From: Olsenella profusa F0195
Lineage (GTDB): Bacteria > Actinomycetota > Coriobacteriia > Coriobacteriales > Atopobiaceae
Reading direction: 5' to 3'
Length of the DNA: 64,000 nt
Assembly (NCBI RefSeq): GCF_000468755.1
Contig: NZ_AWEZ01000069.1
Location: 1-64,000, forward strand
Shown here piece after piece: positions 148-46,396 of the stretch. A program made the translations under genes and the position numbers. Within the stretch, counting starts at the first letter, position 1; every line of letters begins with the position of its first letter. The notes under the pieces are model-generated. The model saw only the letters and a list, made by a program, of their open reading frames with translations, did not search any database and was not told the DNA's origin.

Positions 148-291
148 GTGTGGGTGCCATTTGCGCCGTGTGGGTGCGATTCTCCCGGCCCGGCCCGGCC
201 CCCCGCGACCTGCGGCCCCGTGGGCCGGTCACGGGAGAATGGCACCCACATGTAGCGAATCGCACCCACACGGGTGGGGAACCGCGCCCAC
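148..291. repeat. GTGTGGGTGC hairpin element, copy 1
   Basis: A large imperfect inverted repeat. The left arm has two units beginning GTGTGGGTGC (148 and 168, period 20). The innermost continues GATTCTCCCG into a stem that closes with CGGGAGAAT (232-240). The right arm has the reverse complement units GCACCCACA at 242 and 262, with a degenerate third near 284. The core between the arms contains GCGACCTGCGG and GTGGGCCG, also present in copies 3 and 5 and, inverted, in copy 2. It fills the gap between two convergent genes. Function unknown; options are a bidirectional 3'-end structure, a protein-binding array or a miniature mobile element. Confidence 0.85.
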
Positions 292-348
292 GGCGGGATC
301 CCGCGCCGATGGGGCCTCCAGCCTGGCGTGACCGCGCGGCACGCCAGG

Positions 349-1251
349 CTATGCCCGTCCCGCCGCGGCTGCGGGCTCCCGAGCCTGGGCGGGGTGCGCC
401 GCGAGCCAGGCCGCGGCGTCGCGCGCGGCCCGAATGCCCCCTCCCCGGGCCGCCACGGAGGCGAAGCGCTCGCGCGCGAGCGTCAGGTCGCCCTGGGCCG
501 CGGCGAGGCGGGCGGCTTCGACGTCGGGCGACAGCCTCTGGATCGGCGTGATCGCAGTTTCCCGCATCGTGCCGATCGCCTCGTTGCAGCGCTCCCAGTC
601 GCCGGCCTCGAGCGCGAGGCCGAAGTCTATGCCCGCAAGCACCAGCGCGCCCGCCTTGGCCATTCTCCTGCTCGTTTGGAGAAGCGCCTCCACCTGCCCG
701 CGTATGCGGGCGAGCTCCTCGTAGTCACCGCTGTGACGGGCGGCGTTGGCGCGCACGTTGCAGCACAGGACCCTCTGCGCCGTGCGCGGCCTGAGGTCCC
801 GCTCGGCGTGGTCGACCCATTGGAGGGCGACGTCGTCGCGGCCGAGCTGCTGGGAGCATTGGGCACAGATTATGGCGTAGGTGGCCTGCGCCCACTTCCT
901 GCCCTTGCGCCTCTCCATGACGATGGAGATGGCGTCGAGCATCTTCTGGGGGTCGAGGTCGGTGTGGAGTATCCCGTAGAACCCGCTGATGTCGCGGATG
1001 AGCAGGAGCGCGAACAAGGCGATGGTAGCCAGGAGGGCCACCACGAAGAAGGCGATGGCCTCGGGGTGCTCGATGTCCGGGCCCGCCCAGGCACGGCATG
1101 AGAACGCCAGCACGAACACCGCCACCACGTACGCGGCCACGGTGAGCCTGCGCCGGCCCAGGAACCTTCCCGCCGCCTGCCGCGCGGTCAGGCCGGCGTA
1201 CCTCGACTCCCCGGAGGGGACCATGAGCCTGGTGAGCCAACCTGAAGCCAT
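349..1251 (-). CDS. Membrane-anchored helical-repeat (TPR-like) protein, function unknown
   Basis: 300 residues from ATG 1251-1249, preceded by a GGGGAGG ribosome site about 8 bases upstream. Longer upstream starts would run through non-coding-looking sequence and were rejected. Two hydrophobic segments lie at about residues 36-53 and 66-85. The rest is amphipathic helices whose spacing and Ala/Leu/Tyr pattern resemble tetratricopeptide repeats (for example ALQWVDHAERDLRPRTAQ and CNEAIGTMRETAITPIQRL). A membrane anchor plus cytoplasmic helical repeats suggests a scaffolding or interaction role. No catalytic motif is visible. It is convergent with the gene ending at 145 and divergent from the LXG-like effector cluster at 1872. 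Confidence 0.75.
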   Translation of the reverse strand: MASGWLTRLMVPSGESRYAGLTARQAAGRFLGRRRLTVAAYVVAVFVLAFSCRAWAGPDIEHPEAIAFFVVALLATIALFALLLIRDISGFYGILHTDLDPQKMLDAISIVMERRKGRKWAQATYAIICAQCSQQLGRDDVALQWVDHAERDLRPRTAQRVLCCNVRANAARHSGDYEELARIRGQVEALLQTSRRMAKAGALVLAGIDFGLALEAGDWERCNEAIGTMRETAITPIQRLSPDVEAARLAAAQGDLTLARERFASVAARGGGIRAARDAAAWLAAHPAQAREPAAAAGRA

Positions 1252-1871
1252 GCGGCCTCGCCTCCCCGGGGCCGCCCTGCGGCGGCCTTCGCTCGTCTCC
1301 TCCCGCCCGTATGGTACCACGGCCGTACCGTGGCGCTTCCCCACTGTTCGACCGCGAGCAAACGGTGAAGCCGTCCGACTGTCCAACAAAGATGTTGCAT
1401 GGCTGGTCAGTAGATTTTGGGCAGTATCGTTACAGGTGGCGTCCCGCACCAGCCCGAAGGTCCGGAACGATCCGGGAGGCTCGCGATGATGGCGGACGAA
1501 GGCCTGACGAGGGCCATCGAGGGCATGCCCGTGGTCCGTTGCCGAGATGCCGGAGCTCCCGCCATCCTCTAGGCCGCGCTGCGTGACCGACCGGGGCATG
1601 TACCAGGGGCCCTCCAGTTTCGCGCGCCGGCCACGCCCAGTGCCTGCCCCGGCTCGCCGCACGTCCGCCACGTCTGCACGGGACCCTACGAGACGAACGA
1701 CGAGAGGGCGGAGGGATTCCCGGCTCCTCCCGGCGTTCCTGAGCACTACAACGTTCCTGAGCACTACAATGGTGACGGGGCACGCGGTGCCTGCGGGGCC
1801 TGTCTCCCGTGTCGCGCGTGAGCGGCGCCCTGACTCTGAGCGACTGGCGTACCGGAGGGCCAAAGGAGTGC
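1252..1871. other. 620-bp gap with a tandem duplication and promoter-like box
   Basis: No convincing gene. This lies between the divergent membrane protein and the LXG-like effector. The 18-mer CGTTCCTGAGCACTACAA occurs twice in exact tandem (1734-1751 and 1752-1769). The second copy ends in TACAAT (1765-1770), a plausible -10 box about 100 bp before the effector start. A plus-strand frame over 1650-1800 reads like weak protein (GPYETNDERAEGFP, PEHYN twice) but has no start, and may be debris. No other structure stands out. Confidence 0.4.
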
Positions 1872-45376: not shown

Positions 45377-45682
45377 TGAGGCTGGGCAAGAAGCACGATG
45401 TCGTTCTCTGCCATTCAGGATGTGTTGGGTTTCCTGATTGAGAGCATCCCATATGCTTACCACCTTCCGCTCGTCAGACAGAGTCGCAAACGGCCCCGAT
45501 GCGGTCACGGAGATATCCAACGCCTATAATGACGGATCGTCACTATTGTTATCGGATTCTCCAAGGTGGCGCGACGGACAGGGACGCTTGAGTGCGGACG
45601 CGTGCGCTCGCGGTGCGATGCCCTTGTCACCGTGCGGCAGCGTGAGCACTGCGGGATCCGACTACCATGGAAAGGAAGCGTC
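45377..45682. other. 306-bp gap after the LXG effector
   Basis: A TATAAT hexamer at 45525-45530 is a possible -10 box for the lipoprotein gene, but no good -35 is seen. A 43-codon frame from ATG 45400 (SFSAIQDVLGFLIESIPYAY) and one of 82 codons at 45438 exist. Either might be a tiny or degraded immunity gene, but support is poor. Confidence 0.35.
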
Positions 45683-46189
45683 ATGATGATAGGCACCAGT
45701 ACAAGGCACGCGAGGATCGGCAGGCTGGTGGCCACCCTTGCCGCGCTTCTCCCGCTTGCGTTCGTCGTCGTCCTTCTCGCGGGCTGCCACTCCTCCAAGT
45801 CGTACTCGTTCAACGTCTCCACGGGCGACAGCATCAAGGTCGAGCTGGACACGTCGAAGGGCGGGCTCGACCTTCAGACGAGCGACGACAATTCCAAGTT
45901 CACTATCGCGAAGGACGGTGACACGGAGACCCAGGGGCTCTTTGCCGAGGAGAGTGCGTACGACCACTACCAGGAGCTGGGCAAGCGCTCTGCTGGCGGC
46001 ACCAGTGACTACCAGGCGGGCACGACCAAGGACGGCAACGAGTACTTCTCGTATACGGTCAATGGCAACGAGTGGGACTACTTCATCAAGGTCAAGGACT
46101 CGCACACGGTGATCGTGCTGACCAACACCGTCTCGCAGGAGTCCGCCCAGGAGGCGTTCGAGCAGTTGAGCCTCTCCTTGGACAAGTAG
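45683..46189 (+). CDS. Small lipoprotein, unknown function
   Basis: 168 residues from ATG 45683 behind GGAAAGGAAG. Signal peptide with lipobox: VVVLLAGCHSSKSYSFNVST, Cys at about residue 34. The mature part is acidic and strand-rich (IKVELDTSKGGLDLQTSDDN, FTIAKDGDTETQG, EWDYFIKVKDSHTVIVLTNT) and has a C-terminal helix. GC is normal for the chromosome, unlike the LXG operon before it. Could be a surface immunity lipoprotein for a secreted effector, but may simply be unrelated. Confidence 0.75.
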   Translation: MMIGTSTRHARIGRLVATLAALLPLAFVVVLLAGCHSSKSYSFNVSTGDSIKVELDTSKGGLDLQTSDDNSKFTIAKDGDTETQGLFAEESAYDHYQELGKRSAGGTSDYQAGTTKDGNEYFSYTVNGNEWDYFIKVKDSHTVIVLTNTVSQESAQEAFEQLSLSLDK

Positions 46190-46239
46190 CTGCACGACGA
46201 ACCTGCGGCGTCTGCGGTCGTTCGGTCGCTTGTCGGGAC

Positions 46240-46396
46240 GTGTGGGTGTGATTTTCGTGTGGGTGCGATTTGCTTCCCTGTGGGTGCCAATCGATTCGTG
46301 TGGGTGCCTTTCTCCCGGAGCCGTCTCCAGCGACCTGCTGTTTTGTGGGCCGTCTGCGGGAGAAAGGCACCCACACGCAGCGAAAGGCACCCACAT
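46240..46396. repeat. GTGTGGGTGC hairpin element, copy 5
   Basis: Left units at 46240 (GTGTGGGTGT), 46257, 46278 (CTGTGGGTGC) and 46298; the innermost continues CTTTCTCCCG. Right units, reverse-complement, at 46367 and 46387. Core GCGACCTGCTGTTTTGTGGG CCG in the same orientation as copies 1 and 3. The first left spacing is 17, the others 20-21. It lies between convergent genes (lipoprotein and murE). Confidence 0.85.

What the first reader, a model, noticed from the sequence alone, without database searches (positions are those of the whole stretch)
148..46396. A family of giant hairpins built from 20-bp GTGTGGGTGC units with variable ends
Seen directly: four complete copies (148-291, 7829-7988, 19040-19219, 46240-46396) and one half copy (37594-37620). 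Each arm is a series of 2-4 units of about 20 bp. The first 10 bases are nearly constant (GTGTGGGTGC), then S-A/T-TT, then a variable tail; only the unit next to the core always ends in CTCCCG or similar to form the inner stem. Arms are inverted around a conserved core, GCGACCTGCGG ... GYGGGCCG. Units are spaced 20-21 bp, two helical turns, so every GTGTGGGTGC faces the same side of the helix. That is what a multimeric DNA-binding protein array would show, but the hairpin and conserved core would also suit a structured RNA or a non-autonomous mobile element. I know no named element with this plan.
Basis: partly seen in the sequence, partly recalled or inferred. Interest (0 to 1): 0.8.

Follow-up and report, generated by a model that had tools for sequence, protein, structure and literature searches.

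The report
Helix-phased core-and-arm DNA repeats
The window holds copies of a dispersed DNA repeat in which a conserved short core sits between mirrored arms; the same plan, with different arm sequences in different species, recurs across a whole bacterial order with the arms set at whole turns of the double helix from the core, so it looks like an unrecognised class of protein-assembly site, possibly the target of a selfish DNA-cutting enzyme.

Summary
Four full copies and one half copy lie at the stated coordinates. The genome has about 36 copies and a second strain about the same. They are intergenic, with a rigid plan: arm units 20 bp apart and a 39-bp core; 33 of 36 measured copies share one arm-core geometry.

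This is unlikely to be an RNA hairpin: the arms do not co-vary above shuffles and Rfam finds nothing. Congeners carry the same plan with different arms (31-bp period, three helical turns).

The core, related to ACCTGSGMAAACG, occurs 795 times against 71 for the control in 140 family genomes, and is enriched in other families of the order but not clearly in other orders. Where arms exist, their offset from the core falls on a 10.3-bp lattice (27 values, p about 4e-10), the signature of a protein complex on double-stranded DNA.

Tested and not met: REPIN/RAYT, shared IS21 ends, RNA family. In five other genomes a DUF559-like gene, whose only PDB match is a homing endonuclease, sits beside such arrays, twice between two direct copies.

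Best guess: targets of a homing-type nuclease, here gene-less. The geometry is shown; the nuclease link is inferred and was not found in the window's species.

The parts
148..291 (+). Copy 1: arms with two good units on each side (148, 168; 242, 262) plus a degenerate outer right unit; core 188-231, 44 bp, with the 13-bp core at 208-220. Offset +9, off the lattice because of a 5-bp repeat in the core.
7829..7988 (-). Copy 2: three units each side, core in minus orientation, 13-bp core at 7901-7913; homology to another genus (G120) ends in its outer left unit
19040..19219 (+). Copy 3: three units left, four right; 13-bp core at 19115-19127
37594..37622 (.). Half copy: two right-arm units, no core; strain G002 has an IS110/IS1111-split element near this place
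46240..46396 (+). Copy 4: four units left, two right; 13-bp core at 46333-46345; lies between convergent genes; orthologue in strain G002 has one unit fewer on the left

Best explanation
The repeats are double-stranded-DNA assembly sites: a conserved core (here ACCTGSGGTTTTG, in relatives ACCTGSGMAAACG) between inverted arms, which in this species are runs of the unit TGTGGGTGC. A protein complex grips both arms in helical register with the core. They form an old population that differs greatly in number between related species, with arm sequences replaced from species to species. Most likely mechanism (inferred): the site is the long dyad target of a homing-type PD-(D/E)XK (DUF559-like) nuclease; the nuclease cuts near the dyad, and repair from an allele holding site - nuclease gene - site in direct repeat spreads the gene; recombination between the direct copies removes the gene again and leaves solo sites like those in the window. 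Shown: the plan, the lattice, the order-wide core, nuclease-like genes beside such arrays in five genomes, twice between direct copies. Inferred: binding, cutting, and that this species once had such a nuclease.
For: Rigid geometry in the window's species: offset +4 in 33 of 36 measured copies. Core ACCTGSGMAAACG 795 against 71 control matches in 140 family genomes, enriched in other families of the order, not clearly in other orders. Arms scoring 12 or more at 31 of 62 core matches in the order, 0 of 20 in other orders. Offsets on a 10.3-bp lattice, Rayleigh p about 4e-10, 0 of 2000 random sets as regular. Nuclease-like ORFs between direct copies in L422 and L361, with arrays or inverted arms on both sides in L269 and L362, beside the element in L415. 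Their profile's only PDB match is 3r3p, 'Mobile intron protein', E = 0.0023; EDxHD homing endonucleases dimerise on targets of nearly 60 bp (PMC3943268). Gain or loss of a 5.6-kb stretch between direct copies in this species.
Against: No nuclease homologue in the loci held from the window's species (best E 0.12), and its whole genome could not be searched for it. The link rests on five loci (4 in 160 kb of core loci against 1 in 400 kb of chunks, p = 0.026), and loci centred on cores favour adjacency. Nothing shows that the nuclease binds or cuts the site. No clean empty site or recent insertion was seen between strains.
Confidence: 0.4

Rival explanations
1. Host-serving chromosome-organisation sites (BIME-like): a nucleoid-type protein binds the phased arms and a conserved partner binds the core, wrapping or bridging the chromosome.
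For: Helical phasing; stable positions between strains; intergenic in all gene contexts; uneven distribution, none in 0.81 Mb of G002.
Against: Copy number varies greatly within one genus (103 core matches in G003, 2 in G004); units not significantly slower-evolving than flanks between strains (7/972 against 64/5738); the gap in G002 is only p = 0.04 after merging clusters.
Confidence: 0.25
2. Non-autonomous transposon (MITE-like) whose arms are arrays of transposase-binding sites, as at the ends of IS21/Mu-type elements.
For: IS21-family ISs in these genomes have inverted terminal arrays of similar motifs about 22 bp apart; no IstA-type transposase in G001 and G004, several in G000, G002, G003 and G120; two near-identical copies 1.3 kb apart share only the element (L045).
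Against: No IS21 copy examined carries the unit of G000 or G003; G001 has core-arm elements without an IstA hit; no clean empty site with target duplication seen; a conserved central core is unexpected in a MITE.
Confidence: 0.18
3. Att-like site of a tyrosine recombinase, for example host Xer proteins acting on the core with the arms as accessory sites.
For: Core plus phased arms is the plan of integrase sites; one copy is inverted in place between strains (L052 against L143); 5.6 kb gained or lost between direct copies.
Against: The intact tyrosine recombinases shared by both strains are two Xer-like ones that congeners with few sites also have; only 1 of about 30 orthologues is inverted, and imperfect palindromes can also flip by other routes.
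Confidence: 0.08
4. A structured RNA or transcription terminator.
For: Inverted arms; in some relatives 20-30 bp perfect arms that differ between copies of one genome (L415 and L430).
Against: No co-variation above shuffles; no Rfam match; convergent, tandem and divergent gaps alike (12, 15, 9); asymmetric arm steps in G003; offsets on a DNA-helix lattice.
Confidence: 0.06

Closest known systems
REPINs (REP doublets) with RAYT transposases
   Same: Dispersed inverted-repeat population, old and stable within a species, no longer visibly moving (PMC8049555)
   Different: No Y1_Tnp gene in either strain; REPIN spacers are highly diverse whereas the centre here is conserved across an order; arms are helically phased arrays of non-palindromic units
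EDxHD / Vsr-like homing endonucleases (I-Bth0305I) and their targets
   Same: Nuclease-like genes beside the sites match the I-Bth0305I domain; long target bound by a dimer (PMC3943268)
   Different: No intron or intein: the site is an intergenic repeat in many copies, and the gene lies between two direct copies
IS21/Mu/Tn7-type transposon ends
   Same: Inverted arrays of about 10-bp motifs at about 20-22 bp
   Different: No IS21 here shares the unit; no transposase gene inside; conserved core in the middle
BIMEs of enterobacteria
   Same: Intergenic mosaic of repeated units in both orientations
   Different: Fixed dyad plan with a core; recalled from memory, not tested further
Integron attC sites
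   Same: Palindromic sites with a short core that IS1111-family ISs insert into (PMC11187229), as happens here
   Different: No cassette array; core unlike GTTRRRY/RYYYAAC (consensus from memory); double-stranded helix-phase constraint

Membership tests
Order-wide core-and-arm class described here | Arm offset on the 10.3-bp lattice, commonest value +4/+5 | tested here: met
   33 of 36 measured copies of the window's species at +4; copy 1 of the window is at +9, two more at +3 and +2
Order-wide core-and-arm class described here | Core ACCTGSGMAAACG | tested here: inconclusive
   The window's cores share ACCTGSG and its geometric position, but continue GTTTTG in place of MAAACG
REPIN/RAYT | RAYT (Y1_Tnp) gene in the genome | tested here: not met
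   No PF01797 match in G000 or G002
REPIN/RAYT | Highly diverse spacer between the inverted repeats | tested here: not met
   39-bp centre with invariant columns; core shared by other genera
IS21-type ends or MITE derived from them | An IS with the same terminal unit | tested here: not met
   No unit clusters in the 19 IS21 loci examined other than separate elements in L040
IS21-type ends or MITE derived from them | Target-site duplication at filled and empty sites | tested here: inconclusive
   No clean empty site among about 30 strain comparisons; L047 against G002 is a deletion remnant
Structured RNA | Compensatory changes in the arms | tested here: not met
   Co-variation score 0.127 against 0.115 in shuffles, 68 of 500 reach it
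Structured RNA | Match to an Rfam family | tested here: not met
   Only a tRNA in the window
Integron attC | Dedicated integrase next to a cassette array | tested here: not met
   Shared intact tyrosine recombinases are two Xer-like ones; flanking genes are ordinary and of mixed orientation
EDxHD homing-endonuclease target | Nuclease gene next to, or between copies of, the site | tested here: inconclusive
   Met in five other genomes; not found in the loci held from the window's species
EDxHD homing-endonuclease target | Nuclease cuts the site | not testable with these tools
   Needs biochemistry

The most novel reading that the evidence does not exclude
An order-wide, undescribed class of genetic element: a conserved 13-bp core with exchangeable, helically phased inverted arms, serving as the target of a homing-type nuclease whose DNA-reading part and arms co-evolve within each species; a lock-and-key selfish system that leaves tens to a hundred gene-less sites per genome.
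Probability: 0.35. Interest if true: 0.9.

Novelty: categorically new. Interest (0 to 1): 0.82.

Why it matters
A core conserved across an order while its binding arms are replaced from species to species is an unusual evolutionary pattern, and the 10.3-bp lattice gives a read-out of a protein-DNA machine from sequence alone. If the nuclease link holds, it would be a dispersed homing system; if not, an unknown architectural or recombination protein waits to be found. Either way the element is a ready probe for pulling the protein down.

Tried and rejected
RNA hairpin: no co-variation, no Rfam match. REPIN/RAYT: no Y1_Tnp. Phage-type integrase partner: inventory does not fit. IS21 ends: similar architecture, but no shared unit. 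Recombinase-in-trio elements of G003: own terminal repeats; a shared CGCGACCTGCGG stretch lies in a terminator-like hairpin and is taken as chance. Integron-like cassette array: flanking genes are ordinary (polA- and uvrA-like, recognised from sequence) and gene orientation is mixed. Terminators between convergent genes: contexts are mixed. Strong selection on single copies: not shown. Searches of plasmids, phages and viral contigs with the element: nothing. The one genome-contig scan used an exact inner-unit pattern and returned one-off matches in unrelated genomes only. An automatic orientation call flagged copy 1 as inverted because its core is 5 bp longer; it is not. A first orientation script used a wrong offset and was redone.

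Full report
CHECK. The unit GTGTGGGTGC is far more frequent than chance in the window (29 against 7.9). The window is the start of contig C69 of genome G000, 2.72 Mb in 73 contigs. That genome has about 36 full copies and a few half copies; a second strain, G002 (one contig, 2.6 Mb), has about the same number. Organism names are withheld by the tools, so 'order', 'family' and 'class' below are the tool's kinship labels.

ANATOMY. In 33 copies the block from inner unit to inner unit is 79 bp without an indel: unit (20), core (39), unit (20). The first-to-second unit step is 20 bp in 69 of 72 arms and the second-to-third step mostly 20-22 bp. Each position has a favoured tail: TTCTCCCG in unit 1 on both sides, CTTTTGCTGC in left unit 2, CAATCGATTC in right unit 2, TTCTCCACCC in unit 3. 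The favoured left and right second tails do not pair. The arms show no co-variation beyond shuffles, Rfam finds only a tRNA in the window, and copies lie in convergent, tandem and divergent gaps alike. A folded RNA is thus unlikely, and a protein assembly on DNA is the better reading.

BEHAVIOUR. Between the two strains 29 of about 30 orthologous copies keep place and orientation, with cores mostly 97-100% identical (correcting the automatic flag on copy 1). Unit number differs in about a third of them, by whole units in the cases aligned. One copy is inverted in place (L052 against L143); its core is also more diverged (86%), so an exchange with a diverged strain may be involved. One is reduced to a remnant in G002. 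One 5.6-kb stretch with further copies, lying between direct copies in G002, is missing in G000 with the junction in the element. Two different elements are split at the same core base, within 1-2 bp of the dyad, by an IS110/IS1111-family IS. Substitutions in units are not significantly rarer than in flanks (7/972 against 64/5738, p = 0.3), so strong selection on single copies is not shown. A block 93-98% identical to another genus ends inside copy 2; the second strain shares a larger region with that genus at about 87%, so this is not by itself proof of element-to-element transfer.

RELATIVES. A model of the 79-bp block finds nothing in three congeners and two copies in one other genome of the family. 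A sequence-blind scan of congener chunks changed the picture. G003 has arrays of AGAATGCGCTTTTCCGTGA with a 31-bp period, inverted around ACCTGSGCAAACG at fixed steps 31/38/17/31. G001 has CTATAGGTTTGAGG around ACCTGGGCAAACG, again at 31 bp. The pattern ACCTGSGMAAACG then gave 795 matches against 71 for the reversed control in 140 family genomes, with G003 at 103 against 0. Other families of the same order are also enriched (34, 38 and 24 against 0 in three genomes). Genomes of other orders in the class are not clearly so (32 against 19, p = 0.09).

LATTICE. Where the core is found in the order, inverted arms scoring 12 or more flank 31 of 62 matches; in other orders none of 20 scores above 9. 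The difference between left-arm and right-arm distance to the core takes the values -37, -36, -27, -16, -6, 3 to 5, 15, 24-25, 36, 54 and 67: apart from 54, steps of about 10.3 bp (Rayleigh p about 4e-10; 0 of 2000 random sets as regular). Relatedness among genomes makes the p-value optimistic, but the arm sequences are diverse. In the window's species 33 of 36 measured copies sit at +4, the commonest class, although the second half of their core (GTTTTG) differs from the relatives' MAAACG. This ties the window's element to the order-wide class by geometry as well as by the shared ACCTGSG.

A CANDIDATE PARTNER. Among loci brought in by the core pattern, an ORF of about 330 aa recurs. In L422 and L361 it lies between two copies of the element in the same orientation. 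In L362 and L269 arrays or inverted arms lie on both sides, and in L415 it is next to the element. It is below family thresholds (DUF559 at E = 0.004 for one member; no NCBIfam or PADLOC family). The five homologues share a D...E-x-(N/D/Q)...H pattern. Their profile's only PDB match is 3r3p, 'Mobile intron protein', E = 0.0023, which I identify from memory as the catalytic domain of the homing endonuclease I-Bth0305I, an enzyme that dimerises on a target of nearly 60 bp (PMC3943268). Four such genes in 160 kb of core loci against one in 400 kb of random chunks gives p = 0.026, and the one in the random chunk is itself between arrays.

VERDICT. The geometry and its order-wide spread are shown. 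That a protein complex binds both arms and the core is a strong inference from the lattice. That the complex is a homing-type nuclease and that the window's copies are gene-less sites is the explanation I commit to, at about 0.4. Chromosome-organising sites, a Mu/IS21-type MITE and a recombinase site are the rivals. The class fits none of the known kinds whose defining features could be tested. Paper searches found no description, but only open-access papers were searchable, so earlier description elsewhere cannot be excluded.

Noticed in passing
window 1872-7774; L126:9676-17130: LXG-type (weak PF04740 match) polymorphic-toxin-like gene cluster, 93-98% identical in parts to a genome of another genus of the family.
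   Followed up: partly
L051:3040-4760; L135:6020-7790: An IS110/IS1111-family IS inserted at the same core base in different elements; a possible seekRNA target worth checking.
   Followed up: partly
L214, L272-L274 (G003): Recombinase-in-trio elements (three adjacent tyrosine recombinases) with long terminal inverted repeats, one of them inside or beside an IS21-type IS within what looks like a CRISPR array.
   Followed up: partly
L266:1390-1690 (G070): Array of CGTGTGCAAAAACGGACA and its inverse with a 73-bp period and variable interiors, no core match seen; possibly a different class.
   Followed up: no
L059 near 5445 and L060 near 3745, against G002: Two insertions of about 360 bp in strain G002 with no relation to the element; possibly another short mobile element.
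   Followed up: no
L385 (G002) and L425 (G065): Nearly identical stretches with the 13-bp core but no good inverted arms in two distant genomes of the family; possibly part of a mobile element.
   Followed up: no
G002:C1 about 1.68-2.49 Mb: A stretch of 0.81 Mb without elements (p = 0.04 after merging clusters).
   Followed up: partly
G000 contigs C7, C23, C59, C69, C70, positions 1-350: Several contigs start within 350 bp of an element, as if the palindromes break short-read assembly.
   Followed up: no
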